Assembly (NCBI GenBank): GCA_947561715.1
Contig: OX387200.1
Location: 19,718,501 to 19,782,500 of the forward strand
Direction of reading: 5' to 3'
DNA length: 64,000 nt
DNA from: Ascidia mentula
Taxonomy: Eukaryota > Chordata > Ascidiacea > Phlebobranchia > Ascidiidae
Below the pieces are notes generated by a model. The model was given only the letters and a program-made list of their open reading frames with translations, searched no databases and was not told where the DNA came from. The first letter of the stretch is position 1, and every line of letters starts with the position of its first letter. The translations under genes and the position numbers were made by a program. This document shows, piece by piece, positions 4,306 through 62,329 of the stretch.

Positions 4306-7300
4306 ATGTGCGTGAAAGCATGTTCTTGGCAGAGACGAATCGTTGTATTGCTTACCCTTTATGTCAATCTTCTGATCTACCCCTCTCGTGGCCAGCTTAC
4401 GCAATGCTTCAATACCCGTCAATGCAAAGTACAAGCACCAACTTTCAACGTTGACAATGCCGGTATGCTTTCTCCTGAATTTTTGTTAATATTTTAGATT
4501 TGCGTTTTCGTAGATGCTGAGAGTAATTTTTAATGTTCGGAAATAATATCTGGTAAACTTGCCATTTTAAGATTAATTTATGAACCATTGGTATAAGCGT
4601 AATGTTTGAAATAAGTTTACATTTTCTGGGCAGATTTAAATGCCTATTTCATAGTTTGGGGTTTGTTCTGTTTATTCTCAGAATTATGAGTAAATCTGTT
4701 AATAGTGTTCCAAAGCAGGAACCATGTCGTACTTTGATATATTTGTCTTAATTTCTCGATGGTACCTCGGCGTTTAATTCTCGTTTTATAAATATTTAAA
4801 TCTTGTCTTCATTACGGTCATTGTTATATGAAGTTACGTAGCATTATGGTCACAACTTTAACGATCCGCAATACGTGTTGCACTGTTGGGTTGGTCTCAG
4901 AGTGGCTTTTGTGTTTAAGTCCAATTAACATTTTGTGTTTATATCGCAAATGTATCGGCACTAAAATGCCGAAAAAGGTTGGAATTTAACATAATAAATT
5001 TTGCCAGCTTGCAGCACAAAACGAATGAGAGGAAGATAAACTAAAATGTTTAAACCTCAGCACAACTATAGCTCGTATTCATATTTAAGTGCAAAAATTT
5101 CGTTAACCGAAGTATTTGCTTGCGCTTGACAGGAACAAGGTTAACCAAACCAATAGCGTGCGAACCCCGAAATGAACGGGGCGACGTTGCTTCCTTGGGA
5201 AGAATCAGTGTTTCACCGGAGAATGCAACCTGTCGAACGCCGGACGTACAAATATGCAGCTTGGTGAGGAAAAGCTTTGAATTTTTTATGCAAGCCACGT
5301 TGGGTATTCGTGCGAAAGCAGCAGATTAATATTCAACAAATTCTTTACTGTGGGAAAAGGGGTACAAAGAGTTCAGTAATATCAATTTTTAAAAGGCTGA
5401 TACATATGCATGACCAAACTTTTTCGATTCACATTTTGTTCACACCAGCATTATCGCCTTTCGCAAAGATAGCCTATTATATTAGATGGTGATTGTTACG
5501 TATGGGTTTGGGGATGCAAGTCAATATTTAATAATAGCATGGTGAACCTTAAGTTATTTTATATGCACAATGTAATCCAAACTCACCAAGGCGTTCTGTA
5601 ATAACAGAATTCTGATGGTAAAAAGCGCTGTGGATATTTGAGTTGGTGTTTTTGAATAAAACTATAACATTCAACAATTAACGTTACGATAACTTTACCG
5701 ATGTTACAGAGCAGAAATTAATATTATCCAGGATGATAGCACCAATAAATCCTAAAATAGCAACAGCGCATCGCTTAACATCGGAAATAGAACAGAAATA
5801 TTTGAAGTGGAGATTTTCCTTTTTAATATCCATGACAGAAAATCGAAGTGTTGTAGATTTCAAACCACGAAGTGCTTCACTATTGGTTTACATTAAGTGT
5901 CAGCAAACTTTTTTATATGGCAAACAGCCATATGACTGTGAAAGCAGTGACGATCGGGGGCAGATACCCGTTCAAAGCAAGATTAGTTTTACAAAAATAT
6001 TCTCCTTGTACTAGTCAAATTAATCTTGCCCTGAACGGGTATTCTACTCGTAATTAGAAAACTATTTTCCTCGTATTTTACAAGCAATAATTCCTGATAT
6101 CAATTTCCAAAAGCAGAACACCAAATTGCCTGCAACATGTAGTGACGTACAAAATTAAATCGAAATGTAACGGTCAGTACATATAGTGTGAATGTATTTT
6201 CTTTTTTGTGGGACCAAACCCGATGGGTCGGATAAACCAGCCGTGTGGAACGGGTCCGGCCGAGAGCTGTTATTTGGTGACGCCTGGTCTACATTTGCAA
6301 GTAATTTCATTTTCAATTTTCCATCCGCAGCAAAACCGGATTTCGTGCTTCAAATGTGATGCATCACGTGATGACAAGCGTCACGAACCAGATCACATGA
6401 TCGACGGCATCTCATGGACTTGGTGGCAAAGTGTGACGTGGCCGGGACCGAAAGACAGCCGCCTTACTGTCAACGTTACATTGACTTTGCCAAAAGTATT
6501 TATTCTGACCGGTAAGTTTTGGCAGATTGAAAGCAGAGAACGTCGCCGTGTGGTTTCAATACATTTTCAACGTAATTGAAACAACACAACAGCTAATATT
6601 TTCAGTGGGGCAACAATGCTAGGCAAGTAAACTAACTTCAGGCCTTGCGTTATTATAAAGTACCTATCGCCTACTTTACTCCGTTAGGGGCCTGGTGTTG
6701 CCAACCTACATCCCTGCATCACTAATTTCTTTTTTTGTAATCTTTGTTTTCGTGAGTTTTTTCGTGATTTGAACCCAGGATATCCTGGCCACAATCCCCG
6801 ATCAGCTTTTCTTTTTGGTATATATGGGTCGGGCGCTTGACCAATGCTACCAGTCACCCGCCACTGCATTACTACATTTCAGATGACATCATGATCGAGT
6901 TCTACGAAGGGCGACCTCAAGCGATGATAGTTGATAAGTCGTCGGACTACGGAGTCACGTGGCAACCTCTGCAATATTTCGCCGACGACTGCGTGAATCA
7001 ATTCGGAATAAAACGAACGTAAGTTTTCGTCTTTAAGTTTGGATCTAATTGACAAGTTAGTATTTTTGTTCAAAATGTCTTGCAGATTGACGGCGCGGGC
7101 AGATGTTATCTTTGCATCGCGCGTGCATAATTGATAGATGAAAATGCGCTGTTTCCTTATCTCGTTTCTGTACGCTTTGCAGAGCCATCAACACGCCGTT
7201 CAAAACTGTTGGCGAGGCCCTTGCGCCTTTCTGCTCAGAAGACTACAGTAGGAACTATCAGTGGGACTTGACTGGCTTCGTTCCGGTTGCCATTGCCAAA

Positions 7301-10300
7301 CGTCTCAATGCACTCACCGCCATAGGCCTCGGACAGGTCAGTGTTGTTAGTAGATACCGGAAACTCTTTAATAAAGTACCAGAATCGCCAAATAGTCTTG
7401 TGGGCAACAAAAAGTTGTCATCTGATTTTTTCTCACACAACTTGTCAGTTACAGGAAATTAACGAAAAAACGAGTTTTGTGACAAGTCAAACCCTGACCA
7501 CTACCAATGCCCCGTGATAGTTAGGAAATATTGATTATTAGCAATTATATCGTGAGCTGGATTCTGGTGCGATGAATTACATTTCGAGATCTGTGTCCAC
7601 GCGTGGCCATACTTAAAACATGGCAGATCGAAAATGCTGAAAATCTTTGACTGGTTGTTGTTCTGCGTTTCGCAAAAGTCTACACGCATTCATGGGTGAT
7701 TAGGGTTTTTTTCAGGTGATTATATTCAAACAACGTCCGACCACAAGTAACACATTGTCACCAATGATGTTTTCCATGAGGCTGTCCCCAAGGAACAAAA
7801 ATAAATCGACTTGAAGTCACAAGGTCGTGATCTGTCTCCTTTTTTCTTCAAAAATATTGAACGAAGCAAAAATCAATGCGGTCAATAGTGCACAAGCGAT
7901 AGACTAATGCGTTTGCCCGTGGCATTACCAACTTTCTGTCATCGCGTCAAAATTGCAGGAATATTTTTGAACAAACAAACGTAAAAACCACAGGAAATGA
8001 TGGAGATTCATAAATGTGGAACGAATCCGGATAATGCGCAATAGTCAATATATTAATACTTCGTAATGCATTTTTTATAAACTTTTTGTTTGAAGATTGC
8101 ACCCTCCTTTTCTTTCCAATAAAGCGTGCAACTTCCAACCGTAACATAATACCCGAGTTTTCATATTTGCGCTTTTTTAAAACTCTTGAGTTCCTTTATG
8201 TTTTATGCATGTCTGGTCCGTTCCCAACATAATTACGCCTTGGTATGCTTCTCACGTAGGACGAAGTGTGCTCAGCGATGTGGAACGATACGATCGGCCT
8301 CAAATCGTTCCTTGAGATCACGGGACTCCGCATCAGACTTCTTTCTCCCGCTGTCCTCCATTCCTCTTCGAAGAAATCTTTGGATGATCCGGACACCGAG
8401 AAAGAAACCGTTCTCCCTAGATCTGATCATTACGGAATAAAGAAGATTGAAATATCTGCTAGGTCAGGAAAATGCAAAAGTTAATGGTTCGGAGGGCGTT
8501 CTTCGCAAATGCGTCTGACAACAGTTTGTCATGTTGATAACGTTAAAGATGGCCAACTGTTTACAGTGACGTAATGCGAATTTACAAACCTGAAATGCGC
8601 AATGAGGTAGTTGTAACGTAATATGAGGGTTCATGTAGTGATTACAAGGCAATAAGTGGAAAGGAATTCATTGTCTGATATCCTATTTGAAGATTACGCT
8701 TTGCTGATAGGCAAAATTCACAGAATCGCAAACTTTGCTGGATGTTCATTTACATTCTTTCACACATTTCGTCGTATTGTGCCATAAATTTTGAGCCAGA
8801 TAAACAAAAATTATAGTCGAACTGTTGACTTTGTGGCTGTAGGCTAAAGAGCCACCTAGAGAAAATGTCAAAAATGACGACAGGATCAGCCTGTGCAGGT
8901 CTGTGACCGGCGGATCTGTCTTTACGAATCAATATATTACATTTCCGAGATTCCAAAAGGAGTAAAGGACGATCAGCGCCAGTGTATGATCTTTATTTTT
9001 TAACAAAAATATTAATTTCGCCTATCAGACTCTGGTGCTGATCGTCCTTTATTCCTTTTGGAGTCTCAGGAGTAGCTATTTAATCATAAAAATTTCTTCA
9101 TCTTGCCAGTTTGCTGTAAGAGACGCAAACTACACTAAGAAAAGCGGAAAGGCCGGCTCGGTGTACTGTTTGTAGCTGGAATGTTATGATTACAACTCTT
9201 ATACTATTACTAATACAGGTGCCAGTGCAACGGTCATGCCAGCACGTGTACAACTGGCACAAAGACAGCAAGGTGTGATTGTCAACACAACACGATGGGA
9301 AACGAGTGTGAAAAATGTGAATCGCTGTTTTGGATTGAGAAGTGGAAACCTGGAATGTATGTCGCAGGCCGATCACAAGGAAAGGGCAACCCGTGTAAGA
9401 CACAAGTGACGGGCGGTAACATTTGCTTGGCAAGCACGAAATTTTCTTAAGCGAAACTTAATTCATAAAAAAATAAACCAAAGCTAAAGTTTAAGTTAGA
9501 AAGTTCTTGGATTTTTCATGCTTTTTGAAAGACATTTTGGGCAACAGCTCGATGACGTTTGTTGTGCCTTTAGGCTTTTTGCACTACGGACCAGTTAAAT
9601 ACTGTTTTTCGTAGCGGCCTTCAAGGTGCTTTCGCAGAAGATCCTAGCATAAATTATAACTCTACATGAGGCTGATTGGGTATCTTGGATCATACAATAC
9701 AATGATTTAGTTTGCAACCAGTTTTCTTTAAAGCGTGCATAAAGTTCCAGCAGTTTCTAAATTATGGTCTATAATTTTTCCTTCTGTACGAACCCGTCCA
9801 AACTGCCTCATGGACCAATATAATCTCTCTAGTGTAGATTATTGTAACGTAATTTTACGTTAAATAGCAACGTTTGCATTCTTGGAAATATGAACTATGG
9901 TCACATAACAGCAATCGATAAAATACACCAAAAAAACAAACGCATTGAAAAAATTGAGTCCAGACAACCCAACAACCCTTAAATTTCAGGTTTGTCATAC
10001 TTCTCAGCATGGTATCGTGAGAAGCTCATTAGAGAAGGGCGCCATCGTCCCGGTGATAGAATTCCTCCCACTAAACTGCCTGCTCCTTGTCAGTGCAACA
10101 AACACAGCCACAGATGTGAGATCATTGATAAGATGGGAGTTGTATGTGTTGACTGTCGCCACAACACCGAAGGCCAAAACTGCCACAACTGCCGTCAGAC
10201 TTACTTCAGAAACCCGGATATGAGTCTGCACGACCGGAATGTTTGTCAACGTAAGTTTTATAACTATTTTTTTTTATATTATGTGGTAACCCCGATGTCG

Positions 10301-22400: not shown

Positions 22401-25400
22401 ACCAAACCTAGCGTTCTTTTAAGAATATTTAATTTCTTTGAAAAGTTGAACGAAATTATTAGCGCAGTTTTAAAAATATTTTTTGCCAGTGCTTACCATA
22501 AAATTCTCAGTCATGCAACAATGAATTCAAAGACTTTTGTATTGCGTTTTTTTTAGCGTATTAAGGTTTGCAGTAGAACATTCTAATGCCACAGCCGGCA
22601 CCGAAGCCTACCTACAGGATTCGAAACTGCGTCTTTTTTCAAATTTTGAACAACATGACGATGTGGTTGTTAATACTTATTGTTGATAGGAATGATGTTG
22701 TGTATTCTGCAAACTTCTGCTCTGGCTGTACTGTACATGGTAGTGAGCTCTCTAGAATAATTTATTTTTAAATACGTATAAGGCAAGCGAAAAATAAATA
22801 AATAAATAGGCACAAAATATATGTTAGGGTGGCAGCAGTACAAAGAACTTGGTTCACAGTCAGTACGCGAAAGTGCGACCTCGTAGCAAAATAAGGAACT
22901 TAATAATTATTTAGCGATCATAAATAGAAATATAAAACTGAGCAGGTAGGCGAAAAGAAGTCGGCAATGTGTTGCGGTTATTGAGTGTCGTAACTGTAGA
23001 GTCGCCCCCTGATCCCGTCTTCGAATATTGCGCATCCGACTCGCTTTTGTTTTGGCAGTTCGATATCAACAAGATCTCTGAAGTGGCAATTCATTGCAGC
23101 GTCGATCTCCTTTAAAAAACATTTGCGATAATAATGTCATGCTGTTCTGTTACAAGATTGTGTTGTCGCGGTAAGGCATGCTGTGGCGGAATTTTTTTGT
23201 ATTTCTGAAAGGGGGCACTCTGTATAAACAGTGTTAGGCCCTGATCGATAATACGAAGGTTAACTGGGTATTTGCAAAGGTCGCGGTTTGTCTATGTTTG
23301 GTATTTGAACTGCCTCAGTTGACTATGCGTGAAGCTTACTTGCCGGAAAATGCGCATGGAAATCATTGTGGCATAAAAATTAACTTACGTCGTTTGAAAG
23401 CGTGTTTTGAAAGGCGAGTACCCGCAACAGACTGTAAGCATCGCTTTCCAGGGCGTCCATACATTGGACGCTAAGTCGAAGCGGGTCGCAGAGATCTGCA
23501 GATTCCTACACAAACAAATACGCCTTCATTGCAATAACCTTTTAAAGGTGACAAATGAATTAATTCTTATGGCGACTATGAACTAATTTCTTGTCATAAA
23601 CAGAGTTTTTCTCCATAAAAAGCAAGGAAATTGGGTCGCCCATACCTTGTCGCTTTTGACGTGGTGAATCCAGGGTTGGGTGGGACACCTTCTGGGTCGT
23701 TTCTACGAAATAAAAACGAAAGCAATTAAATTTGCCGCCCACAAACTTTTAAACCATGCCTTTGTGCAGTGACAGAACTTACGATGAGTCCCAGTCTGGC
23801 GTTTTGAAACCAGAGAATAATTCTGTAGAGCTCCACAGCCATGGTTGGGCCTTCGTCGTCCCAGAGGTTTTCAGTCAGCCATAGGTTTGAAATGGATTCA
23901 CTGAAGTTCATCGGGATCTGTTTTAAACGCACGTTCGTGTCAATACAGTGTCATTTCCTCACAGCCTTGTTTTTATCAGGTTGTCCAGTAAACGTATAAA
24001 CTTTCAATAGACAACTATAAAATGATCATTCGGCGTGGGACTGCGTTTTGTTCGCCTATTTGTCGGTTATCCGCCCCCAAATGTTGTTGCTTACATGGGC
24101 CTCAGTGAAAAGGTTTGGTGGCCCATGGTTTAGACAAACTTGGCCAAAACTGTTCCTATCTGACGTAACGTTGCAGGGGCCTGGTACGAAACCTTTATAT
24201 GCTTCGTGCGTGTTTAGCCTCGGTCTGAAATCACAATGTGGCGGCTTTAAACTTTGCCGCATACAAGTATTCGAAAATCACTTTCACTTGCATCAGACTT
24301 TTTCAAATATTTACCGGACGTGATGTAAAGACTATTTGTTACAAACCAAGGCCGTGGGTTCGCAGCAATAAAGCCGTGTGGTAAGTGGTGGTAATCTAAT
24401 ATTGCTGTGCAGATACGGTTAAAAACTTGTTTGTAATGTGTCAAGAAAATCACAGACTAAACTTTAAGGCCTTGTAACTTTCACTAAAATTGTTTACAAT
24501 AACATTTAATGACAAAAAGAGAAAGTAAAATAAGGTGGATTGTATAAAATGTTGTAGAAGTTATAAGCGTGCAAAAAAAGCCATAATAATATTGGTAAGC
24601 TGCAGACAGGGTGTGTACCTTTAGCGCTATCGGTTATTCGTCTCTGTTGTTTGGTACTCAGTATAGGGTACCCAACAGATCGACGTTGACCGGACAGGTA
24701 CCACAAAGTGGAATCTAGTGTGCCTGCTAGTCTACCAGCTAGCACAGTGCCACTGCAACAGCTGCACTGATAAGACCTCACAGGTCGAAACAGTGCGTGT
24801 ACACACCCTGTCTGCAGCTTACCAATAGTTATAAGCGCTTATTCAATTGAACAACAAGATAATGTTAATATTGTAAGATTAGATATATTGTCTTACCAGA
24901 ATCCGACCGTCGCTGCGGTCTTTCATTAAACCTTCAAGAGTCTGGTCCCAAATTGCGTCCAGGAAGTCGTCCACGTTGTAGTGCAAAGGAGTTGCGCATT
25001 CCAACACAGGACGGGATGATACACGAACGACACAAAGTAGAAGTCCGATGACCGACAAAAGCTTGGCTGACATTTTTGCAAAATTTCTTCTCTAAATCGT
25101 TTTTATTCTTATTCGTCGATTTACTGATTCTTTGCTCTCGTGGGGTTGTTGTCGGTGTTGGTAGTTCGCGATGCAGTGATAATTCCACATGGTTGTCCTG
25201 TCGCTTATATAGCAGAATCCGGTGATATTTTCCATCGTCACATCTAAAAATTGTCCCAAGTATCCAAGACGGAAAGTGCAATGATGTAACCGACGATCAG
25301 CGCCACCGACGCGCTTTGTATTTACAAGCCTGAATTTAGTTCGGAAGTCCTGGCACGTCGAGAAGAGGTCCACCCAAATTTAGTTGTGATTAGTCCGGAT

Positions 25401-28400
25401 GCGGCTGCCGACCGCCTGTGTGTTTCCGTTGCCCCGAGATAGACACCTGATTTCGTTACTCTCAGCTGTATTTTCAGGTTGCGTAATGAGCTGTACACAA
25501 ATCAATAACCGCCGCTGTGTGCTTAACCAATCCATTTCGGTTTGTTTGTGGGTATTTCTGGGGATGCGCTTGTTTGGTTTAGATAAGATACACCTACTTT
25601 GAGAAGCTGGTGTTAGAAGCCCGCGCGTTGTTTTTGGAGTAACACAAGGTTATTGACCTCACAGACGAATTCCTTCCGTTTTGTGCTTTCCAAACAGTGT
25701 TTTTCGCGGCTTCGGTTTTATCAATGGCCTCCTGCAGCGCGTCACCACACGGTGCTTTCCCCTTGAATTCCTAGTAACGATATTAGCATACTCCAGCCAG
25801 GCAAAATATTTACTCTCTCTGATCTTCTCTGCCAGGCAATCAAGTCGAAACGTCACCTCGAAACCGCAAGTACCGGACGGCCTGATAGCAACGACCACAG
25901 CGTTCGCGTTGGGCACCACGGAACTCACCGAAACCACGCAAAACAACCTCTGCACGTCGTATAGCAACTTAACCTCCAATGACTGGACATTCGCTGTACG
26001 CGACTCGACCGTGTTCAACAGCAGTGGTTACGTGTTCGACTGGGGTCGGTGGATCGACGATTCGCACCATTATCTTAAAAACGGCGACATTTATCGACTC
26101 TGCGGCAATCAGAGCAGCGCAGTGTAAGTTCACAAATACTTGTTCCCAAAATTTATTCATTTTCATTCTGTGCAAGGCTCTATTCAACAATAATGAAATA
26201 GGGCCCAAAGCAATTCCAGACGATCTGTACGTAACAATAACTGTTTTTATGCAATATACACCAAATACCAAACTGATCAACATTATTTCTGTACATGTTT
26301 TCATTGAATAGGAAAAGGTACAATCCCGTTTATATCGTTTACTTTCGTTATATTATCAATCGAGCCTCCCACAATTTAAGTGTTTATTACACACAAAATT
26401 ACCAGGAGCTGCTTCGACCAAGTCAAGCATAAGCTAATACTTTTTCCGAGCCATATGTCATTCCTAATTCGTGGAAACTCTCGCGAATACTTCGAATTGG
26501 GCATACGACGAAACAACCACTGTTACAAACTGTTTCGATTCTCATTTTAGGAAATGTCCCGGAATCACAACGTGCGTTCAAGCCGGGGGAAACCCCAATT
26601 TCGGATATACGAGCTTCGACAACTTTTTCTACGCCTTTCTTTCCGTTTTTCGACTCTCACTCCAGGATAATTGGGAGGAATTGTATCTTCAGGTCATGGA
26701 AACAAACGGTGAGTGCGAGAGTTTATTGGAGAACGTTTGCGATACATCCTTGCGACGTTAGTTGTAGCGCGATTGAGCCGAAATACAAGAAAACAAACCA
26801 CCGAACTCATTGATTTGATGGTGAATGAAAAATGGCTTTTAAATTATTTTATTTGCGTACAATGCAAATGTAATAAAAGCAGGCATTGCATGCAATATGC
26901 TTTCTGTTCCAAAATTGGACAAGAAAATATTTATGTGTTTATACTTGAAAAAACAAAGTTTCATGGATTTGCATTTTGGAAAATACCTTTAACCAGCGGA
27001 AGTCCCTGCTTTTGCTACATTTGTGAAATGCTTGGTTCTATTGTATTGCCAATTTAAGGCCTGCAAGAAAATAACAAATCGAATCCATTTCGCCAGTTTT
27101 TCTACCTACCTGTTCAGTTTGTTCGTGCCTAAAATTTGCAAAATCAATCGAAAATCAAATCACTTTTAATTCCCCGCAAAGTTACTACGCACATAACCAT
27201 CAACGCGAAACAAAAAAATGGCGTGGGCACCGGAAAAATATCGAGTCAGGCGCCCATGTAAAGGTGATTTCCTCAATGAGAATCACCGTCTGTCGTATAG
27301 GATCGCAGTTAGTCGCACTGGAAGGTGGTGGGTGCAGTTCACATACCCATTTATCAATGTATATATCGTCAGACCAGATTAATCCGTGACATCAGGAAAC
27401 CCCACTATCCGACACAAACGAAATTCGTTTCATCATCAACCCTGTTATTGTTTAATTTCGTAAATCTGAATACCCCGACATTATGTGACGAAACAAAGTC
27501 CGGAATTACGTGGTCTGAACTTACACAACAATCAGCAATGCAAAGAAGGGTTGCAATACAATGTCAGGTATATTGCAGGACAACTGGCGTTTGTTTTTTT
27601 CCTCGTCATCATCTTCCTGGGGTCGTATTACCTCGTCAACCTGATCCTGGCTGTGGTGGCATCGGCTTACGAGGGACAGAGGAAGGATGTGGCCAACGCA
27701 CTGGAAGAAGAAAAACGCGAGCTGTTGAGCGAAAAGGTGCCAATAAGTAACAGCGCGGTGCCGCCAATTTTGAGTGTGTAAAAGTTTGATGAGATGTATC
27801 CAATGGCAATATAAAGCGTTTATGCAGCGCGTAGGGTTACACTGTTCCTTTAAGAGCCTCATGTAAGGTTACACTTTGAAGCACCGAGGCCTTTAATTGT
27901 TCATGTCCAGAGTGCGTTTTGCCATTTAAGTCGTCGGTTTAAACCTCACCCAGGGCCGTTTTCTTTTCGTCTTGCAAGTTACGTAAACTTCAGATTAACA
28001 ACGTTTTTTTGCGGAATTCTTGGTGTCCCGGCATTGTGACCTCGTATTCACTAAATGTTGATTGTTTTATTTTTCAGGAAATTCTGAAAAAGCGAAGAAA
28101 CGCGACGCGTACAATGAGCGAACTCACTCGACAATCCCAACAAATGAAGCAAAATGAAAGTTGTTTTTCCAAATGCTCATGTTACGAATCCTTCAAAGAG
28201 ATCTTTCTGCTGTAAGTCGTAAATATAGCGGTCTGGTCAAAAAAAAATTCTGTGAAATTTCCTAAAAATTTAACTATTTAGGTTTGTTTGGGGGTTGAAA
28301 CAAAAAAAACTGTTGGTATGAGGGACCCTCTTTTTTAATGCGGGGTCTGATTTAATAAGATCGGTCAAATGTGCCAAATACTAGATGACCTTTGATATTT

Positions 28401-31400
28401 ACAAAGCCTAACCCTTGGCATTGCAAGACATAAATAGCTAAATTCTAAAATGTGTGTAAAAGTATGGCGGTCCCAAAATTACCTCAAAACATTTGTTTTG
28501 TTTCAACTCAGGTGGTCCTGTTGTATCGGCGAGAGTGTCATTTGCAAAATACGCGAGAAGCTGCACAAGTTTTTCTCCGCCTCTGTGGCGGAGATGCTCA
28601 CAGTTTTTCTGGTGATTCTCAACACATTTTTCATGGCATTGGACGGACAACCTATGGGTGAAACACTGGCGAAAGTCCTGGTCGTTTCAAACATTGTAAG
28701 CAATAGAGCAATTAATGTTTTCTTTATAGTGCGTTGCAGACAGGAACACTGTTCGTTTTAGCTTTAACTTGGTTACAGTGTTTCCACCTTTGTTTGTTTC
28801 CGGCGGGTTACACCTAAATTGGCACCCAATGCTGGTCAATGGTGGCTGTATAGTCACCACAAAGTGGAGGTCTTTTAGCTCACAAGATAGTTGTAAGTTA
28901 CACCATAACTTGCACTATGTGACCTATAGGTCGAAACATTGGCCCTGTCTGCAGATCACTATTGTAAGGTTTATATTATGCTTGTTTTTGATGTTTAACG
29001 ATGAATGTTTTTTGGCCGACAACAGTGTGTATGAAGCGAATTTACGTTGTTTAAAGAGCGAAGTGGTAATGCCGTGTAGCTTGCACTGTTGTGGTTTTTC
29101 TTGGTGGTCGGGCGAAAAAGCGGTAATGTTCATGGCACAAACCGCATTGTTAAAAGTAGGTTTGGGTTCATTAACTGCATACCCGGAATCAAATCCCGGT
29201 CTGGCGAATAATTAATATTTCCCATCTTGTTCAGGTTTTCACAATGCTCTTCGCGGTCGAAATGGTGCTGAAAATTTTCGCACTGTCGCCTTACAACTAT
29301 TTCATTGTGAGTTGGAATGTGTTCGACTTCGTAGTTGTGTCCCTGAGTCTCATGGAGCTGGTTCTTTCTGACAAGCTCCCCGATGGCTTGTCGGTGCTGC
29401 GAACTTTCAGGCTCATCAGGCTGGTACGTGTAACAATATTGTATCGGGCAGTGTTTTTTATTAAACATAGTCGTCACAAATAATATTTGACCATTATACA
29501 CAATTTATAACCACAACCTTGTAATTAAAAGATGACAATTGTGACTTTCCTGTCGTATATATACCGGAAATATATTGTATTGTTTGATCTTCGTAATTAT
29601 TCATGTAATTCCTTCAACAGGACTATAACGAAAATTGGTGTAAAACGTGCAGATTTGTCCACGTACTTGTTTGAATTGTGGGTGCGCTTTACCGACATAA
29701 ACATCAATTTAACGCAGCATTCTAGTCATTTTTAATGCTCTGTCAGAAATAGAGATAACCGGAGTCATTTTTTCGTCCAGGTTCGAATATTGAAGCTCGC
29801 TCGGTCTTGGCCTACGCTGAGCAAGCTTATGCAGATGATCGGCGACTCCTTGAGTAAAGTTGGATACCTAACACTCGTCCTACTCATTGTGCTGGTGATC
29901 TTTGCACTCGCAGGCATGCAGACCGTCGGACCGCAATTCTTCATGAACAGAGATCAGGTGTGGGGCGAGTTTTGTTTAACAGTCCGCTTCAATTTTCCGC
30001 CTGATGCTCCCACTAAACTGTTTGGTATCACAAGAATCTGTCAAGCCGTGCGTCGTTAGCGCTAATTTACCTCCGATACTCTTGAGAAAGGTTAGGACAG
30101 TGCATGTTTCGTCGACTGTGCCATGACCTCGGTCAATATTCTGTTTGCAAGTCCAGCAACAAAGGACCGTAAAAAGGTTTTGAGCAAAAACACTGCGCGC
30201 AGCTTCGCAAACACAATACCGTCATCGTACAAACCAGCGCGGTGTTCCAAAATTACTTTTGAAGAGCAAGTTCCACCTACCGAAACATTTCCATAACATA
30301 GTTTAAAATTGAATTGTCCAAAACAAAACACAGATTTAATTTAAAAGTTTCATTCTGTCAACCCCGTTATATTTTCTCGCCCACGCCCGAAAGGTCGGCG
30401 CATTGCTTTATAAATGACCTGGCTGCAATTTCTTGCACAAGCAAAAGTTTCAAGGGTTTGCTCAATGCAAAATGCATGCCGGGTCAGCGGGTGGCTTCGT
30501 GGCTACCAGCATTCATCTCGTTCCGTTTAACGTCGCGAAGAAACAAAACTGTCGACCCCCCCGCTCGAGCCCGCCTAAATATTTATAACGCCTCTCCCGC
30601 AGCCAAGTCATTAATTATTAACGCGAAAAGGGAAACTTTATCTTGAGATAAGTGCGAAGTAAAGCGGGTTGAGTTGCCGTGGGGAATAGCGGATTTTATC
30701 TTTTGTGTTGGATGTTTGCACGTCGCATCCACGCTACTGGCCCGGAACGTCGATTCTTTAGAATAAAACACTTGTGTTTGTTTTGAAAACTAAATGTGAA
30801 GAAATGACATTAAACAATTGATTCAGTAACATTTAGGAAATGTTTTTAAAATTGTAAACTGTGTTAAATGAATATTTGGGCGAAACAAACACATTGCACG
30901 AAGTGGAATTTCAAATGTATGTAAATTGTCAACGGTAAATATAATCACTGGGTTGCGACGGGCTGCAGTGTTTTGGGCACTTAGTATTCACAAAAACTTC
31001 GTAAGCACATGTTTTTAAAAAACAAACACCTGAATGTTTTTGAGCAGATATAAAACTTGCGCATACAGAAATGACGTTTTTGTTACCACGCCGGGATTCG
31101 AACCCGGGTTGTCCTGGGCACGAAACCCGACCAGGTTTTCTGTATACGGGATAGAGGCTTAACCGATGTCGCTTGTTGCATGCTCACTTGACCTAAAGGG
31201 CGCTCTGGCACCGCTAGCGGCAAAGTTCCGTCAAGAGGAATTGTTCAGAGCAAATTTTCCTCGTCGTCAGAGCTGCTTTCTCCAGCAACCGACATATACA
31301 GAGTCTCTGTTTCATCTCGGAAGCGGACGCTTCTCTTCCTCTTATTCGATCCTTCCTCCTCTTCTCCTGCTTCCTTCTCTTCCTCCTCCGATGAGGAAGA

Positions 31401-34400
31401 TGTTGCGGAGGAGTCGGAGATTCCGCTCGATTCCAACAAGATGTCAGCCATGGTGTCATGAGGATCATCACCTTCCACTCCAACACTGCTTCTGCGTCTT
31501 TTCCGGATTTCGCTGCTTTCTTTCATCAGACAAACGACGCACAATCTTTGCAAGAATATTTGTCAGCGTTGTTATTACGCGTGTGAGGTTTTAAATATTC
31601 CCAAATTATACTTAAAGATCTTAAATCAAAACGTGTCACTGTGGAGATTGATTTCTTTGGAGATAATGTTAGTATTGTGATCGCGTAATACTATAGAGTC
31701 ACGTGCAAGTCGCTACAGCACACATAACGTGGATTTTCAAACGCTCCACTGCGTCTTGCACCAGAAGTACATGAGTTTTGATTTGTTTTCGCATCAAATA
31801 ATTTTAAATACCTGTGAAGATCTTCGAAGCATTCCACACAATATTGCGCCTTGCATCCGAACGTCGCACAGCTGGTAAAGAGGTGGGAGTGCCTTTTCCC
31901 ACCAGCTAGTTTGCATACGTTGCAACGGTAGAACGTTCTTCGACCAAGACAACGCGCGAGCCACCCAATGACCTGTGCGGACCTTGCAACTAATAATTTC
32001 AAGATCGATGCAATATTTCGTCGGTTATTGACTAACGCACATTATTGACTGAGGCTAAAATTACACATGGACTCAAAACCACGCAAACTTCTTTCTTTAC
32101 TTAACGAAATTAATTTTTTTTGTATTAGTACGACTAATACTATTAGTTTCTTTTCTATCTCAGCAATTTTACAACTTTAAACAATTATCGGGAATTCTAG
32201 AACTTTAAAACGCTTTAGTACCAACCCCACGACGATGGGAGAGACGTCCTAAAAAGTCGTAACGATCTTCTTCCTTACTCTGCTGCACTTTCAAGCAGGC
32301 TTTTTTTAATGCGTTCGCCAGGCCCGTTCCCAAGCCTACATATCACCATGTTTGAGCGCAGAAAGCATCAGGTATATCAACACGACCTACTTAACCCTCT
32401 CCCAGAAAGGATCTTCGCTCTGAGAAAAAGGATTCTGGCTCGCTCGCGTTTCGGATGATACCTTGCCATGATCCTGCGCCGAATGCGGAGCACGTATGCC
32501 TCGGCAAAGCAAAATGTGTAGAGAAGGACGTACAAGGAGGTGATGAACGCGTAGAGGTAGTAGTCGGGTGGTCGCGGGTTTGGCAAGCATTTTTCAATGG
32601 AAAACTCGTAGCCCTCCGAGTTGGCCAACCTCTGCATTGCGCTTGCAATTGACCTGCCCGGGTGTGTAAAGTGCTTTTTGAGTTTGCTATGGGCTTATGA
32701 CGTTTGAAATGCAGGAATGTGCATGACAGTTATTTGCAAAAAGTTTTACTTCCGATAATGGAAAACCCTAGTAGTTTTTTTTGAAATGTAGATTTTTTTG
32801 AAAGAATTGCCCACAAAAAGTGAATTTGGTATACCTTAACTGAATGCCAGTAAAAAATCTCATGCACATCCCTAAGAAAACGTTTTCGGTGTATATCAGT
32901 TAACACGTGTACAAAAAGTCGCAGAAAAGTACCCACATTAGTTCACAATATACCTGTAGATGATAGAAACAAATCCTATTCCGCCGACAGACAAACTGAC
33001 CAACTTTGCCACGATCTCTTTAGCCTTTTCGTCTGCCACATTCCCCATAACGGAATCTGCCCCTTTCGTTAGAACTTCCTCCAAAAAAGTGGCAGCTTCC
33101 TGGCGCAGGGAGAGCGACACCGCCATCTGGTGGAGAAGCCACCAGAGACTGTAGTCGACGAAGATAATTGCAACGGCGTAGATGAGGTGGAATGACATGG
33201 AACTTATACCTTTGGAGAACTTCTTTAGCTCAGCCCGCGACATCCAGATCCTAGTGATCGTTAAAAACCGAATAAATTTGGACCAGAGGAGTTGGTAAAC
33301 GGGCTTCGGTTTCAATAGTTTACAAAAAATCAAATTATTTTTTCCAAACCTTCACAAAAAGGAACACAACTCACGGGTTTTCTTATAATTCTGAGTATAA
33401 AGACGTCTTCCTTTAAACATGACAGTGTTAATAGCAATATGGGTCTCTTTATATTCACAAAAAGGATTTAAAATTTACTCATTCTGTGTAACGTTTACTG
33501 TGTAGGATGTTTATTGAAAACATAAAGGTGAAAATATTTGCGCTAATATAAAAGCCTCCGAATTCGCGGGAACTATTTTATTTAACCTGTTCGGACTGAT
33601 GTATTTCGAGTTTTCTTTGGCTCTGAGAGGAAAAACGGAAACACCCCCACTCTTCTTCCTCTTCTTGTCGAGCTTGTCCAATTGATCAGTGACGTAACAA
33701 TTGTCGAATTCGTTTGAAGTCAGATATTTATGTCTATGAAAATTAGGCCTGAGTGTTATACCCAGGTTGCTAAAACACAATGCAATTTAACTTTAAACGG
33801 ATAAGAGTTATACGAAGTCAATGTGGATGTTACGGTAGTACATGAGCATAAATGCAAAAAAGCCCACCTAAATATCTGTAGTCATTTTTTGCAGAGGGTA
33901 TTTCGATCTGTTTGTATGGACGAAAGGAGCACAACCAACATAAGGAAAATGAGTCATTCTTTGCATATTACCTGTACTTTATGGCTTTCAGGATCACAAA
34001 GGCTGTTGAAAACCCCATGGCGAATCTGACCCACTCAAATACATCGGTGACGCCCGAAATCCTTTCCTTGATTTCACTCAAAATGTCACTGGTTATATTT
34101 CCCACGGTTTTCGACGCGTTAACTTTGTAGGTGAACTCGTGTGAGAAGGACATTTTAAATTCGAATTCCTCCTAAATAAGCGATAATCGATAAAAATAAG
34201 AGTTTTGCCACAAAAGAAACTTTGAAAAGAGTCTGTCTTTCTACCAGTTTCAAAATTCTCTGCGAATTCAACACTAAAGCAACGAAAACATAAAACTTTT
34301 GGGCGCACCCACTGCTAAAAGTAATTGCACCAAAATTAGAGTGCACACAAAACCTTTTCAGAATAGAATCAAACAGCAACACTTTAACAAGACAAACCTT

Positions 34401-37400: not shown

Positions 37401-40400
37401 CACAAATTCGAACGTTGAGGAACGAAGTTCGCGCATCGAAAGTTCAACCCAACTAAATCACGTGAACGGAGTAAGAAGCGAGACGGCGGAAAGAGCACAA
37501 ATGCCCAACATGTTGATGGGTCACCCAGTACTGCGTCGAACTGACAACGGTTCAAACAATGTAAATTTTTATGATCCAACACAGTGGTTCCCAACCTTTC
37601 TTGTCTTGCGGCACCCCTATGTAGTTTATGAAGATTTGTCGGCACCCAACGGCTGCAAAGTCTTTCTATCTGATTCTAGATGGGAGGCTTTTAATCATAA
37701 TAGAAATTTGTACCCTCGATATGGTATTATCGTCAAACCGCATGGTGAAAAATTTCCAGAGTGAAATATAAAGAAATGCTAGAGGCACCGGTGAAAGTTG
37801 CAAATGGTGCGACAGAGTGCCGCGGTTGGGAACCACTGGTCTAATTTCGCTGCCTGGATGTCCATAGGTGCTGCGTACTTTGTTGGTGTAGCAAGCATAT
37901 TCATGTGGGCATTTTTAAGTAGGTTCGATGTAGGTAGAACAGCGGCATGGTTTTATTCGTGGCAACAGACTTTCGGTAACGCTTTCCATACTGCAATAAA
38001 AGCTTAAACCATTTATACAAAATATGGTTATGAAAAAGATTTCCACCTTGTGGTGACTATACATTATTGACTCTTTTGCTTATGGAAACGTGGGTATTTT
38101 GTGACAGAACTCCAGTCTCAAGCCGAATTCGGTGAAGGTGCTCACCAAAACCACATCCCGTTCTTCACACGGCTCAGACAGTTGTAACCTGACCGATGTC
38201 ATGCAGTCTCGACGCGATGCGTGGTCGACTCTCTTCGGAAAGTTCTGCGATACCAAACCTTCGACGTTCGGGAAGAAATGGTCGTCATTTCGTTCCACAA
38301 TGAACCGCGTCGTCCAACACAATATCTTCGAGTCTTTCATCATATTTGTGATTTTCCTCAGCAGTGCGGCGTTGGTAAGAGTTGAGTAAAGTAAAATGTG
38401 AAAAAGGGAAACAAAGTTTAAATTATTAATTTCCCATCAAACGACAACAAAACTTTTTATTTAAGTATTTTTAATGTTGTGATGACTTATTTATTAATTT
38501 ATTTTGCATTAAACAAAGCTTGTCCGAACACATTTTGTAAACCTTTCGTCGCTCTAAAATCTATATTTTAGCGATTAAAAGCCGTAATAATCTTACAATC
38601 TTTCGTACCCAGGTTTTCGACGACATCTACTTGCCACAGAGGCCGAAGTTGCAACAGGTTCTGATGGTTTTCGATCGAATTTTCACAGCAATATTTTTTG
38701 TGGAAATGATTATGAAGTGGATTGGATTCGGACTCAAGAAATACTTCACTAACGGCTGGTGTCTCCTGGATTTCTTTATTGTGCTCGTAAGGAGGGACAT
38801 ATTTTTATTGCGGTATACGCGCGGCATTTAAGCTTCACTTTTCCCATTTATGCACTTTATTTGCAAAATATACTGTAAATACGAAGCGTTATTAACTGGC
38901 ACGTACATTGGCAACTTTTACCACTAATGTATGAAATGTGTTCATTAAAACGTTTAGTCTGTAAGTTAGGTCAGTTGATAATGACTTCAGTTTCTTTGGG
39001 CTTTAAACTGTTACGCAGTCGCGCAAAAACAGGTCAAAACTACGTTACTAATCACAACCTATTCATTCCATAGGTCTCCCTGGTTTCGTTGACCCTGGAA
39101 ATTGTCGCCTCACAGACAGGTCTCAACAATGCGGATCTGTCCTTCCTGAGAGTTTTGCGAAGCCTGCGAGCTTTTAGACCGCTTCGAGCCATGTCCCGTT
39201 TTCAGGGCATCAAGGTTAGCTATTGGTGGCATCGTATTTTTCGATTCAGCTCAGCCCGTTTAACTTGCTATTCACACACTACAGAGCGGAACTAAATAGC
39301 AGGACAACGGTGATCGGTCGATTGCAACCAAAACCAAACCTTTACACATAATATATACTAGAGCTATGTACCTTACAATTTTATTCCGTTGGTCAACTGA
39401 TGCTTGTACAATTGACGTTCACGCATATCAATGTGTAATTGAAAGAAATGAAATCCTGTTCATTTTGCGCAAAATACCACAACGTAAATGAACTATGGAA
39501 GCAAAACATTTAAACAGCATGGACACCGATAAAACCTTAGGATCAGAAAGCTAACAGATTTAAACCTACTGAAAATAAACGTCTCCTGCTATTAACTAAC
39601 AAGTTTGTTCAGGTGGTCACTGATGCCCTGTTTCGTTCTATCCCTTCCATTCTTAACGTGTTCGTGATCTGCCTCATCTTCTGGCTTATCTTCGCAATCA
39701 TGGGAGTCAATTTCTTCGCGGGAAAAATGGCGTCGTGTCAATGGAAGGAAAGCGGCGAAAAAGTTTGGCATCCAGAAGACTTTGAGCGGTAAAGGCTGAG
39801 CTGTAAAACAATCTCTTGTTTTAGGAAAACATTCATTCGTTTTTCTGCAACAACTTTTGTGCTAGTAGAATTCATTTGATTTTTTTACTCCGCAACCAAT
39901 TCCCTATTCAACTGTTATGTTGTTGGAAAACTGACAATAAGGCACAAAAGAATAGAGTTGCACTCATGCATTTTAGGAAAGTTTAATCAGCATTCGAACA
40001 AACCGCGCAACGTTGCTGTTTTGAAGATCTTATATTTTATTACAGGTGGCCTGATCTATTGAACTATTACGAAATGCCACCGATCAATGTGACGGATAAG
40101 GAGAGTTGCAACTGCCTCGCTGAACTCACCAATCACAAGGTTTACTGGAAAAACTTGGAGGTCAATTTCGATAACGTCATGATCGCCTATGTGTCACTGC
40201 TCCAGGTCGGCTAACTTATTTGTTTGTTCTATATTGCCAAAAGGTTTAATTTGGAATACAAACTGCTAAAATTGGGTAAACGTTAAAAGTTTGTGCCTAA
40301 AGTACCTTGCAAAGTAGCAGGGCTTCTAAACTATTTTGTTCTACGACCCTGTTTACAAAAATTTGTAAACCATGTGTGCATTCATATCAAATCGTGTACC

Positions 40401-43400
40401 TCAGGTGGCCACGTTTAAGGGTTGGATGCCAATCATGTACGCAGCAGTGGATTCGCCAGACAAAATCGGCGATCAACCAATCAGAGACAACAACGTGGCA
40501 ATGTATTTCTTCTTTGTCGCTTTCATTATCTTCGGGGCTTTCTTCACTTTGAATTTATTCATCTCCGTCGTCATCGATAACTTCAACCAACAGAAGAAGA
40601 AGTTTGAATTAGCCGGTGCTGAACTCTTTCTCACTGACGTAAGTTTGCTCAAAAAGTAGGAAAGTTTATTCTTTAAAAGTCCCAAAAACTATTTTCACAA
40701 CAACAATCAATTACATGGCAACAATTAAATTGTAGCCTAGGTTTTGTTTCTATTTGATTTTGCAATTTGTACCGATTTTTGAAAAGTATGACGTGTTATG
40801 CGGAGTGCTGGACTTTTGACAACAGATCGTTACTTTGTTAATTGTATAATTGTACGAAATGAAGTGACGTAAAAGTGAAGATTTTCAATTGCTACAACTT
40901 TACACAAATTAGAGCCAAAAGAGAATGTACAGTGCGATGAAAAAGCTGAAGGACAAGTTTCCCCGCAAGCTGTTGCCAGTGCCGAAATCACGCTGGAGAG
41001 AGCGCCTGTATTTGTTTGTAACCGGTGACAAGTTTGAACTGGCAGTGATGGTGATCACCATTCTCAACCTTGTTGCCATGGCAGTAGAACACGACGACAT
41101 GACTACGGGTAATGCCTTATCATTGTGATTTTTATCCATGGCTTGGCTGCAGCATTGCCAGCAACCAGTTTTATTTAATCATGGGAAACACTGTTTGCCA
41201 AATTTTTGCAACACTCATTATGATGATAAATGTTTTGTAGCATATGTGAAACTGTAGTTAGTATATCAAAATACATTGAAAGTCACTTCACATGAAATTA
41301 TTCGAACGGTTCGATCAGTTATTTAACTAACAGTCACCCTCGTTTGTCAACTAAGCCAAAGCCACGAGTTTGTATCAGTTGATTTGTATTATCAGAGTCG
41401 GTCAACGCCCTTCAGATAGTAAGCTACGTTTTCCTCGCCATTTTCACTGTGGAGATTTTACTGCGGATTGTTGCCATGGGTTTGTCCTACTTCATGGTAC
41501 CCTGGAATATCTTTGACTTTCTCATAATATTTGGATCACTACTAGGTAAGTTGTGTCAACATAATGCAGGCAATTGTCCATGGACAATCGCTCTTTTTTT
41601 TAATACCATTTTTTAAGACACAAAAGTCAATATTTGAAGGCTATGGCAGTATCGCAGCACATAACTAAACGAATAATCGAGTCATAAGTTTTATATTATA
41701 ACAATCGTTATCATAAGCTGGTAGCAACAAATATTCTTTATAAACTTGATATTGCACATCGTAACTTTTTGCAGCCAACATTATTTCGCTGGCAATCCAA
41801 AAAACCAGCGACGGTGATGTGCCCACAGTACCCACGTCGCCATGGTTGCCCATGCTCCGTATGATCCGGATCGCTAGAATCCTCCGCATCGCAAGAGTTG
41901 CGAGTGGCATCCGGACTCTGCTCTTTGCTCTCATGCTTTCAGCTCCCGCTCTCTTCAATGTTGGAAGTCTCCTCTTCTTGTTCATGTTCATCTATGCCAT
42001 ATTTGGGATGTCGCAATTCAGTCACGTGGAAAAGAAGGGGGCACTGAACGACGTGTTGAATTTCGAGACTTTCCCAAACACTTTTCTGTTGCTCTTTCAG
42101 GTAAGTTCGACTGCGCCAGTGTTGACGTTGTGATTATAACAGTGGTGAAAGTAAGCAGTAAGGGTCCGGACTGCTGTTCCCGTAAGAATTCAACGGCAGG
42201 TGTATTATAAGAAACTTCAAATTGTAATCACTTGTATAAGAAAATTTTAACCGGTATACCAAAACGCAATGGTTCTTTTTTCCTCTAAATTAAATCGTTC
42301 CGGAGGGTGTTTTTTACTTTCAACCCTGATTAAAAATCAAATGAATAAAGGTAAAAATAATATCTGGTGATGACGTATAATGATTCGTAGTCGTAAGAAA
42401 TATGTACAGCGTAATTTTTTACTTCTGTTTGTTCGTCGATTAAATTTTCTGCAAAATCGTCGCCACAGCACTTGTAACGTATCTCGGTCTGCTTAGATGT
42501 CAACCTCTGCTGGTTGGGATGGTTTCATGGAACCGACTTTATACGTGGATGGTCCCGACGCAGAATGCACAGTGGGTGTGGACGGAGATAAAGGAACATG
42601 CATGACCACAACTTTCATCGGCTATTTCTATTTTGTCAGGTTGGTTAACATACAATTTTTTGGTCACGTTCACATGAATTAAGTTTATATTTTGTTGAAC
42701 AAAAAACGTTTAAGTTGCAGACAACATAACACTAGAAAGCATAGCAAAAGAAAACTTTCCTAATTCACTAAGATTTTATGGTTTACAACGCAAATTTGTG
42801 TGTTTGTGATTTACGTGGAATGTATTTTACCAACCGTTTTTTTAACAGTTATCTTCTGATAACGTTTGTGATCGTCACCAACATGTATATCGCCATCATA
42901 TTGGAAAACTTCGATCTCGCCACGAAAGATAATGAGGAGGCTCTGACAGCAGACGATTTTGAGCATTTCTTTGACATGTGGCAGCGATATGACAAGAATG
43001 GAAACGGAAAGGTTGACATATAGTATTGGCAATTACAATTCTTGTTTTATGTTTGTGTCGGTAATTTTATTCGCAAATAGACTCGACAAACACTCGACTA
43101 CCGAATTCCTTCTGTAAAAATTTGCGTCAAGAAATATATGTTTTTGTCGTGTCAAACCTTGCCAAGTATCGATCGATATATTCCACCCAGTGCCACTAAT
43201 ACGTTTTAGCATAACATTGAATGCGTTGCAGTTAACAATCGACCAACTTAGCGAACTTCTGCACAACATAGACCAACCAATCCAAATCAGAAGACCAAAC
43301 AAGCAGCATATCGCCACCATGCGGATACCGATGTGCGAAGGATGCGAATTACAAATACTTGATGTTGCGGCGGCTCTGCTTAAGAAAATTTTAGGTTGGT

Positions 43401-44744: not shown

Positions 44745-45703
44745 TCATTGGTCTTGCGTCGACTGAGTTTGATCTAAATGATGCGGAGCAGAAAATAACG
44801 CCCTTGTGAGTCGCTTTCCGGAATGAACTAGCTTGAGATTAGCTTCGACGAGCGGTGGTAAGATTAAACTTTCTTCCCCATCCTCACTCTCGGTGAAATC
44901 GTTATCGGAACGCCGGCGGACGAGCTGCTCAGTGGGGCGGATGTGCAAAGTCGGCCCCGATACCTGAATGCTATGCCGGCGGCTTGTTCGAAGCCCCTTG
45001 GGCGCATTCGTGGCAATCGGAGTGTCAAATGTTACATAATCGTCTGCGTCGCTCGATGGCGTAGGCGAAGTATTTCCAGATTTCAAAACATCGGTGTCTG
45101 TTTTGTCGTTGCCGAAAAATCCTCCCTGGGCCTCCAAAGTACCGATATATGAGCTTAGATTGCTAAAACACTGTCTTAACCGAGCGCGCTCATTTTGCAA
45201 AGGAGGAAAACTTACACTCTTCGACCGCGGTCGTTGCGCAGCTGTAACGTGCGGCAATCGTCTTTTTAAAGCCGCTTTCTCCGCATCCACGTTCCTTCTG
45301 TAGCAGAGCTCGTAAAGCTTTCGGTCGTAGTTGATCTGATCAACCCTGGCAAGACCTATGTTGATATCCTTCGTGGTTTTGGTCGCCAACGATTTGTCTC
45401 GCATTAGGACGGCGTCAAACCCCGTTCTTCTGCGCACCCTTGTCATTGCGTCGATGGCGTTCAAGATTCTCGGGTCGTCTGCCGCCACCGTGTGGTCGCT
45501 CAGAAACAGATCTGCATCGATCGGGCTTTTGTGCCAATTTCCGTTCCTATAGCAACAAACAAAATGGTTATTTTGAATAAATAATATTGCACCTCAAGCA
45601 ATTTCCTCGTGGTTTTCTTGAAAGCAGTCATATTTAAAAATTTAAAATGACATAGTTTTAACAGCAAACCGTGTATAGCTCGATTTAAGATGTCTTACCT
45701 CAT
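44745..45703 (-). CDS. Conserved-looking protein of unknown function (2 exons, 268 aa)
   Basis: Exon 1 carries only ATG AG (45703-45699) before a consensus donor gtaagac. Exon 2 (45546-44745) begins after ctatag with G AAC GGA AAT TGG, giving MRNGNWHKSPIDADLF as the N-terminus. The product is soluble, with no signal peptide or membrane segment. The first half is rich in Arg/Lys and contains DPRILNAIDAMTRVRRRTG and YELCYRRNVDAEKAALKRR, which look helical. The second half is Ser-rich and low in complexity, with possible phosphorylation sites (RRHS, RRRSDNDFTESEDGEE). I do not recognise the family. The stop codon is 23 bases from the sodium-channel stop on the other strand. A TTTATT on the plus strand near 44586 could serve as its AATAAA signal, which would put its 3' UTR across the last sodium-channel exon. 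Confidence 0.72.

Positions 45704-53345: not shown

Positions 53346-62329
<8,984 letters not shown>

What the first reader, a model, noticed from the sequence alone, without database searches (positions are those of the whole stretch)
22978..25073. Unrecognised secreted helical, cytokine- or hormone-like gene nested in a sodium-channel intron
Five exons with good splice sites, all introns in phase 0, together give a 205-aa protein with a clean signal peptide. The mature chain has six cysteines, one N-glycosylation sequon, a KRPRR site and several amphipathic helices. Uniform phase-0 introns plus four helices is the classic gene layout of helical cytokines, whose invertebrate members are hardly known. 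The gene has its own TATA box. I could not match it to any family.
Basis: partly seen in the sequence, partly recalled or inferred. Interest (0 to 1): 0.85.

Follow-up and report, generated by a model that had tools for sequence, protein, structure and literature searches.

The report
Candidate sea squirt interferon/IL-10-type signal gene
Inside a sodium-channel gene of a sea squirt lies what looks like a real, single-copy gene for a small secreted protein that matches no known family, is laid out like interferon and interleukin-10 genes, and sits in a genome that also has receptors of that type; whether it is truly a cytokine remains to be shown.

Summary
The product is 205 aa, with a 20-aa signal peptide (by eye), six cysteines in the mature chain, one sequon and one furin-type RPRR site. 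Own-genome searches found only this copy; contig lengths point to Ascidia mentula. No Pfam match; no cytokine among PDB hits. New support: the predicted 3'UTR has the highest AU-rich-element score in the window, and the genome holds STAT hits, two tandem intronless JAKs and two class II cytokine receptors of IFNAR/IL-10R/IL-20R type. Exon number, intron phase, length and cysteine count resemble IFN-lambda, IL-10 and fish IFN. Against: structure models are unreliable (pLDDT 36 and 33), fold search was off, IL-10 and CAWE motifs are absent, exon lengths beyond exon 1 do not fit my recollection of IL-10, and the C-terminus looks short for the last class II helices. Verdict: a real secreted-protein gene by sequence evidence; candidate tunicate class II-like cytokine, not proven.

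The parts
24897..25073 (-). Exon 1: start codon, signal peptide (residues 1-20) and first predicted helix; residues 1-59
   Evidence: donor gtaaga; helix 34-50/51 in both low-confidence models
25014..25073 (-). Signal peptide, residues 1-20 ([20 protein letters not shown]), cut predicted after S20
   Evidence: sequence read directly; cleavage site judged by eye, no signal-peptide predictor available
23783..23917 (-). Exon 2: residues 60-104, sequon N63, second predicted helix about 81-100
   Evidence: weak acceptor score -0.35
23646..23702 (-). Exon 3: residues 105-123, begins with KRPRRC
   Evidence: codon score uninformative
23688..23699 (-). Furin-type site RPRR, residues 106-109
   Evidence: motif R-X-K/R-R found once in the protein
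23389..23505 (-). Exon 4: residues 124-162, predicted helix about 136/142-156
22978..23109 (-). Exon 5: residues 163-205 and stop codon
   Evidence: C-terminus helical in one model, strands in the other
25204..25211 (-). TATA box TATATAAG
   Evidence: 0.75 TATA matches expected in the 700 nt on both strands, so not significant alone
22761..22766 (-). Poly(A) signal AATAAA
22795..22808 (-). AU-rich element TATTTATTTATTTA (three overlapping AUUUA) in the predicted 3'UTR; further ATTTA at 22925 and 22773
   Evidence: AREScore 9.5, highest in the window on both strands
24590..24827 (.). Intron 1 insertion with perfect 29-nt inverted ends, MITE-like; not part of the gene

Best explanation
A real, single-copy protein-coding gene of a sea squirt (Ascidia mentula, inferred) encodes a small secreted, probably glycosylated protein that most likely works as a class II-type helical cytokine. 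Proposed mechanism: transcribed from its own TATA promoter, translated into the secretory pathway, the signal peptide removed after residue 20, disulphide-bonded (six cysteines) and possibly cut at RPRR; the mature protein then brings together the two class II receptors found on the same chromosome (14.63-14.64 Mb), whose bound JAK kinases activate STAT. The AU-rich 3'UTR would make the message short-lived, as for many cytokine mRNAs. Shown here by sequence: gene structure, coding statistics, signal peptide (by eye), AU-rich element, no second copy found, and presence of receptor, JAK and STAT sequences. Inferred: expression, helical fold, receptor binding, JAK-STAT output, mRNA decay, cleavage.
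For: Five-exon model optimal with three training sets, 0 of 5000 simulations as good in each. Four phase-0 introns is what PMC4929537 reports for all teleost type I IFN genes (passages); five exons and four introns for IFN-lambda (PMC4034011, passages) and IL-10 (PMC4338397, passages). IFN-lambda3 of tree shrew: 194 aa, 21-aa signal peptide, six conserved cysteines (PMC3610868, passages); here 205 aa, 20 aa, six cysteines. AREScore 9.5; 4 of 5102 window stretches reach it and all four overlap this 3'UTR. Two class II receptors: R1 Tissue_fac 3.2e-8 and Interfer-bind 2.9e-5, R2 Tissue_fac 1.1e-9; PDB hits at E<=10 are class II receptors in 17 of 19 sequences for R1 (best IL-20RA 4.8e-4) and 8 of 12 for R2 (best IFNAR1 1.2e-8). 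Two JAKs; STAT_bind hits, 3 of 4 over cut-off. Both low-confidence models place helices near 34-51, 81-100, 142-156 and 161-168.
Against: No sequence link to any cytokine: Pfam 0 families at E<=10; PDB gives 7, 4 and 2 weak hits for the whole chain and two parts (best E 0.017, a nucleoporin), none a cytokine. AlphaFold pLDDT 36.1 and 33.2, and the second model puts strands, not helices, at 176-201. IL-10 motifs and the fish CAWE motif absent. Exon lengths 59/45/19/39/43 differ from IL-10 (about 55/20/51/22/30, recalled) except exon 1, so introns 2-4 probably do not lie at equivalent positions, although PMC4034011 says they do between IFN-lambda and the IL-10 family. About 30 residues after the 161-175 helix leave little room for class II helices E and F. 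The AU-rich element has three overlapping pentamers, fewer than the 4-7 of classic class II AREs (PMC3252268), and by the paper's own list Ciona is among the eight species in which scores of 10 or more are rarer than in random sequence. No NF-kB, GAS, ISRE, IRF or AP-1 site in 700 nt upstream, though only 0.02-0.61 of each were expected. Nothing links this protein to these receptors, which lie 5 Mb away on the same contig.
Confidence: 0.33

Rival explanations
1. A real secreted, fast-evolving protein of tunicates that is not a cytokine, for example an immune effector, a gamete or tunic protein, with a partly helical fold of its own. It would act by direct contact with a target, not through JAK-STAT.
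For: No family match; AlphaFold gives strands at the C-terminus in one unreliable model; exon pattern unlike IL-10 (recalled) beyond exon 1.
Against: AU-rich 3'UTR, all-phase-0 five-exon layout, and receptors present whose ligand is unaccounted for (IL10 and IL28A families gave no hit in this genome, though those searches had no positive control).
Confidence: 0.4
2. A helical cytokine of another class: a class I cytokine acting through a GP130-like receptor, or a short-chain ligand of a receptor tyrosine kinase like CSF-1 or IL-34 (strand-like stretch 'RILIPMNF' between the first two helices).
For: Ciona has two class I receptors, one GP130-like (PMC1963337, abstract and passages); by eye the order helix - strand-like stretch - helix resembles CSF-1/IL-34 (recalled, not tested).
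Against: Two class I receptor families gave no hit over cut-off here; the predicted 142-156 and 161-168 helices are joined by only a few residues, unlike the long CD crossover of class I bundles (recalled), though the models are unreliable.
Confidence: 0.15
3. A prohormone cut by furin at RPRR into an N-terminal chain with one cysteine and a C-terminal 96-residue chain with five, held by a disulphide or released as a peptide hormone.
For: RPRR is the only furin-type site and lies at the start of exon 3; cysteines split 1 to 5 around it.
Against: The site may simply be a basic loop; one motif is weak evidence; no hormone family matched.
Confidence: 0.08
4. Chance exons or a decayed gene.
For: One weak acceptor (exon 2) and one uninformative short exon; no transcript data could be examined.
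Against: 0 of 5000 simulations reach the score with each training set; no frameshift or stop; TATA, leader without upstream ATG, poly(A) signal and AU-rich element in the right places.
Confidence: 0.04

Closest known systems
Vertebrate type III interferon (IFN-lambda), IL-10 family and intron-bearing fish type I IFN (class II helical cytokines)
   Same: Five coding exons and four introns, phase 0 as reported for fish type I IFN; about 200 aa with about 20-aa signal peptide; six cysteines as in tree-shrew IFN-lambda3; class II receptors, JAK and STAT sequences in the same genome
   Different: No detectable sequence similarity, no IL-10 or CAWE motif, different exon lengths after exon 1 (recalled), fold unproven; human IFN-lambda1 and -2/-3 are given 5 and 7 cysteines in PMC4034011
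Drosophila Unpaired (recalled)
   Same: Secreted invertebrate helical cytokine-like ligand of a JAK-STAT receptor
   Different: No sequence comparison made here; Unpaired uses a Domeless/GP130-type class I receptor
Oyster IFN-like protein CgIFNLP (PMC8218723, passages)
   Same: Reported invertebrate interferon-like cytokine with a receptor partner
   Different: Not compared by sequence; mollusc; about 15 kDa
CSF-1 / IL-34 (recalled)
   Same: Order of helix, strand-like stretch, helix by eye
   Different: No Pfam match; receptor kinase partner not examined

Membership tests
Class II helical cytokines (IL-10/IFN) | Five exons and four phase-0 introns (multi-exon members) | tested here: met
   reference layout PMC4929537, PMC4034011
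Class II helical cytokines (IL-10/IFN) | Introns at equivalent positions relative to helices | tested here: inconclusive
   Exon 1 fits (signal peptide + first helix); exons 2-4 lengths differ from recalled IL-10 lengths; helix positions come from unreliable models
Class II helical cytokines (IL-10/IFN) | Six-element bundle A-F | tested here: inconclusive
   pLDDT 36.1 and 33.2; fold search switched off
Class II helical cytokines (IL-10/IFN) | Disulphide from N-terminal region to end of helix D (most members, PMC4034011) | tested here: inconclusive
   C26 and C170 could do this if helix D is 161-175; not determinable
Class II helical cytokines (IL-10/IFN) | Sequence profile match | tested here: not met
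   Pfam: 0 families at E<=10; IL10 and IL28A profiles found nothing in this genome, without a positive control
IL-10 proper | Two IL-10 family signature motifs | tested here: not met
   motifs from PMC4338397
Fish group II type I IFN | CAWE motif near C-terminus | tested here: not met
   motif from PMC4929537
Class II helical cytokines (IL-10/IFN) | Binds class II receptor and signals through JAK-STAT | not testable with these tools
   Receptor, JAK and STAT sequences present in the genome; binding not testable
Class I helical cytokines | Up-up-down-down four-helix bundle | tested here: inconclusive
   fold not determinable
Class I helical cytokines | Family profile match | tested here: not met
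CSF-1 / IL-34 | Family profile match | tested here: not met

The most novel reading that the evidence does not exclude
This is an invertebrate class II-type cytokine, a tunicate counterpart of the ancestor of interferons and the IL-10 family, acting on the two tail-to-tail class II receptors found in the same genome. It would place a complete ligand - receptor - JAK - STAT system of the interferon/IL-10 type before the origin of vertebrates.
Probability: 0.25. Interest if true: 0.88.

Novelty: new variant of a known kind. Interest (0 to 1): 0.62.

Why it matters
[quoted passage not shown] A tunicate with two clear class II receptors, and a candidate ligand with the matching gene layout, makes the question directly testable by a binding assay. 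Even if this ligand fails, the receptors suggest that a class II ligand should exist in tunicates.

Tried and rejected
Pfam, PDB-sequence, own-genome and viral-contig searches found no relative of the protein (in one search, 8 stretches matched a pattern and 0 encoded a relative). The own-genome search scores only a few first-look candidates (5, 2), so a distant paralogue could be missed. The best PDB hit (Nup84, E 0.017) covers 62 residues of an intracellular nucleoporin and was rejected as chance. AlphaFold on the mature chain and on the precursor gave pLDDT 36.1 and 33.2, so I drew no firm topology from them. Two class I receptor families gave only sub-threshold hits (one, E 0.064; two, best 0.06, a search that also rang in 2 of 14 control genomes). 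The two Interfer-bind hits at C71:19.81 Mb lie among repeated fibronectin-III-like frames, by eye, not in a cytokine receptor. Of four Tissue_fac hits, two led to the receptors; C73:627800 lies in a 5810-aa open frame with fibronectin-III-like sequence by eye and was rejected; C1:20391938 (E 1.02) was not followed up. Promoter scan for immune sites was negative but expected few. IL-10 and CAWE motifs negative. Splice and Kozak matrices, promoter motifs, IL-10 exon lengths, the CSF-1/IL-34 likeness, Unpaired, and the phase-1 first intron of long-chain class I genes are recalled, not looked up. AREScore was re-implemented from the rules in PMC3252268. 38 had one training piece out of frame; one search repeats the test corrected.

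Full report
What is there. On the minus strand of 22978-25073 five exons join without a frameshift into a 205-aa protein; every intron is GT-AG and falls between codons. The gene lies between plus-strand pieces of a voltage-gated sodium channel: Pfam Ion_trans is met at 26468-26761, 40369-40659 and 41765-42133, and an S4-like stretch is visible by eye near 21.1 kb. It has a TATA box at 25211, an assumed 112-nt leader with no upstream ATG, an in-frame stop before the ATG, and AATAAA at 22766.

Is it more than chance. I wrote a small gene finder: codon log-odds from other reading frames of this genome (two JAK genes and window frames; this gene left out), splice and Kozak matrices recalled from memory, and a cost per intron. 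Checking the script, I found one training piece (about 88 of 3688 codons) read out of frame. The corrected repeat gives the same model: 16.74 (best of 5000 simulations 10.19) with all pieces, 16.07 (9.27) with JAK and Pfam-supported exons only, 10.59 (9.1) with JAK only; 0 of 5000 reach it each time. An earlier run with a stricter splice threshold had found only exons 2-5 (12.9; 0 of 300 simulations) because the exon-2 acceptor is weak. In a scan of 206 tiles, none of which held the whole model, its parts scored 12.9 and 12.8; chains scoring more than 15.89 lie at 49127-49963 (bZIP), 53346-55069 and 31245-33198, the first two partly in the training set. Among stop-free frames the stated one has the best codon score in 4 of 5 exons; exon 3 is too short to say.

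Which animal. The held genome has 195,842,439 bases; four contig lengths (22,722,200; 19,883,144; 19,871,177; 15,447,500) match chromosomes 4, 2, 7 and 9 of Ascidia mentula kaAscMent1.1 (22.72, 19.88, 19.87, 15.45 Mb; PMC11109543, passages). The species is therefore inferred, with high confidence. The same paper names an RNA-seq run, ERR10378036, which I could not read.

The protein. Signal peptide [20 protein letters not shown] (cut by eye), mature chain 185 residues, 21.4 kDa, pI 4.8, cysteines at 26, 110, 129, 138, 170 and 188, sequon N63, and one furin-type motif RPRR at 106-109. No Pfam family even at E<=10. PDB sequences give only weak hits, none a cytokine (7, 4 and 2 sequences). Own-genome searches found no second copy. 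AlphaFold on the single sequence fails (pLDDT 36.1 for the mature chain, 33.2 for the precursor). Both models place helices near 34-51, 81-100, 142-156 and 161-168, but the last 30 residues are mostly helical in one and strands in the other. Hydrophobic moments exceed shuffles (p<0.05) for 1 of 6 segments. So the helical-bundle idea is plausible and not shown.

The message. The predicted 3'UTR carries five ATTTA, three of them overlapping. By the published AREScore rules it scores 9.5; of 5102 stretches of the same length on both strands of the window, 4 reach that value and all four overlap this 3'UTR. PMC3252268 says that the vast majority of mRNAs of five animal species score below 4, and that clusters of 4-7 partly overlapping pentamers mark class II AREs such as those of GM-CSF, IL-3 and TNF (passages); here three overlap. 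By the same paper's list, Ciona is among the eight species in which scores of 10 or more are rarer than in random sequence (section 8), so the element's role in tunicates is unproven.

The pathway. The genome has STAT_bind hits, 3 of 4 over the cut-off, at C71:3.06 Mb (two) and C2:13.28 Mb, and two neighbouring JAK genes at C71:8.03 Mb, each one open frame (1155 and 1107 aa) with FERM and two kinase domains. A Tissue_fac search gave four sub-threshold exon hits. Two of them, at C67:14.634 and 14.641 Mb, open onto two class II cytokine receptor genes lying tail to tail. R1 (C67:14633558-14637680, plus strand) has seven exons, intron phases 1-2-1-0-1-0, a signal peptide, two extracellular domains, a transmembrane segment in exon 6 and a tail. 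R2 (14641373-14639926, minus strand, C-terminal exons not modelled) has phases 1-2-1-0-0-0. Both models were drawn by eye without transcripts. Spliced, they pass Pfam's cut-off for Tissue_fac (3.2e-8 and 1.1e-9); R1 also passes Interfer-bind (2.9e-5) and R2 is just below it (0.0017). In the PDB, 17 of 19 sequences hit by R1 and 8 of 12 hit by R2 at E<=10 are class II receptors, led by IL-20RA, IL-20RB and IFNGR1 for R1 and IFNAR1 (1.2e-8), IL-10RB and IFNGR1 for R2. Tree-shrew IL-10R2 has seven exons with the transmembrane segment in exon VI, and human IL-10R2 also has seven (PMC3610868, passages). A whole-genome search with R2 found only R2 itself.

How it most likely works. A secreted ligand for these receptors should exist, and this gene has the gross features of a class II cytokine gene: five exons, four phase-0 introns, signal peptide plus first helix in exon 1, about 200 residues, six cysteines (compare PMC4929537; PMC4034011; PMC3610868; PMC4338397). 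I therefore propose that it is a class II-like cytokine that brings R1 and R2 together and signals through JAK and STAT from a short-lived message. The gene structure, the coding statistics and the presence of receptor and kinase genes are shown by sequence; expression, fold, binding and signalling are inferred.

What speaks against it. No sequence similarity to any cytokine; IL-10 and CAWE motifs absent; exon lengths 59/45/19/39/43 do not follow the IL-10 pattern as I recall it after exon 1; the C-terminal 30 residues leave little room for helices E and F and may form strands; the 700-nt promoter has none of the NF-kB, GAS, ISRE, IRF or AP-1 sites I searched for, though few were expected; nothing ties this protein, rather than another unrecognised one, to the receptors. 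IL10 and IL28A profile searches of the genome found nothing, but had no positive control. Frog IL-10 itself has no ATTTA in its 3'UTR (PMC4338397), so such an element is not a requirement of the family. A non-cytokine secreted protein remains at least as likely as the specific class II claim.

Known or new. Tunicate literature seen here reports a TNF homologue, three IL-17 homologues and putative IL-1, TNF and IL-17 receptors in Ciona (PMC5465252, passages) and two class I receptors (PMC1963337, abstract and passages). PMC8218723 says the IFN response is not conserved in tunicates or amphioxus (passages). In the rows listed by my ten paper searches (one search listed 15 of 183 papers) I saw no title or abstract opening on a class II ligand or receptor in a tunicate; the library holds open papers only, and a 2003 paper on class II receptors cited in PMC3296744 (PMC179897) was not held, so absence from print is not established.

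Noticed in passing
G000 C67:14633558-14637680 (L025:4558-8680, +) and C67:14641373-14639926 (L026:3373-1926, -): Two class II helical cytokine receptor genes (IFNAR/IL-10R/IL-20R type) tail to tail in a tunicate genome, each with a transmembrane segment. Perhaps more important than the ligand candidate.
   Followed up: partly
G000 C71:8024632-8033005 (L013:132-3596 and 5185-8505, -): Two tandem JAK genes, each a single open frame of over 1100 codons; Ciona is reported to have a single JAK (PMC3296744, passages).
   Followed up: partly
window 32377-32694, minus strand, probably with more exons up to about 35.7 kb: A DC-STAMP-like gene (Pfam DC_STAMP 1.5e-20 on one ORF) on the opposite strand inside another stretch of the same sodium-channel gene; further exons judged by eye.
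   Followed up: no
window 24590-24827: MITE-like element with perfect 29-nt inverted ends in intron 1 of the candidate gene; identical ends suggest a recent insertion.
   Followed up: no
window 44745-45593, minus strand: A 282-codon open frame with no Pfam match just beyond the last sodium-channel exons seen.
   Followed up: no
window 56417-56728 and 53346-54080, minus strand: SAM/Pointed domain exon and a large serine/tyrosine-rich open frame without Pfam match nearby, perhaps one ETS-type gene.
   Followed up: no
G000 C71:19809240-19818481: Many fibronectin-III-like frames by eye; its Interfer-bind hits are probably not a cytokine receptor.
   Followed up: partly
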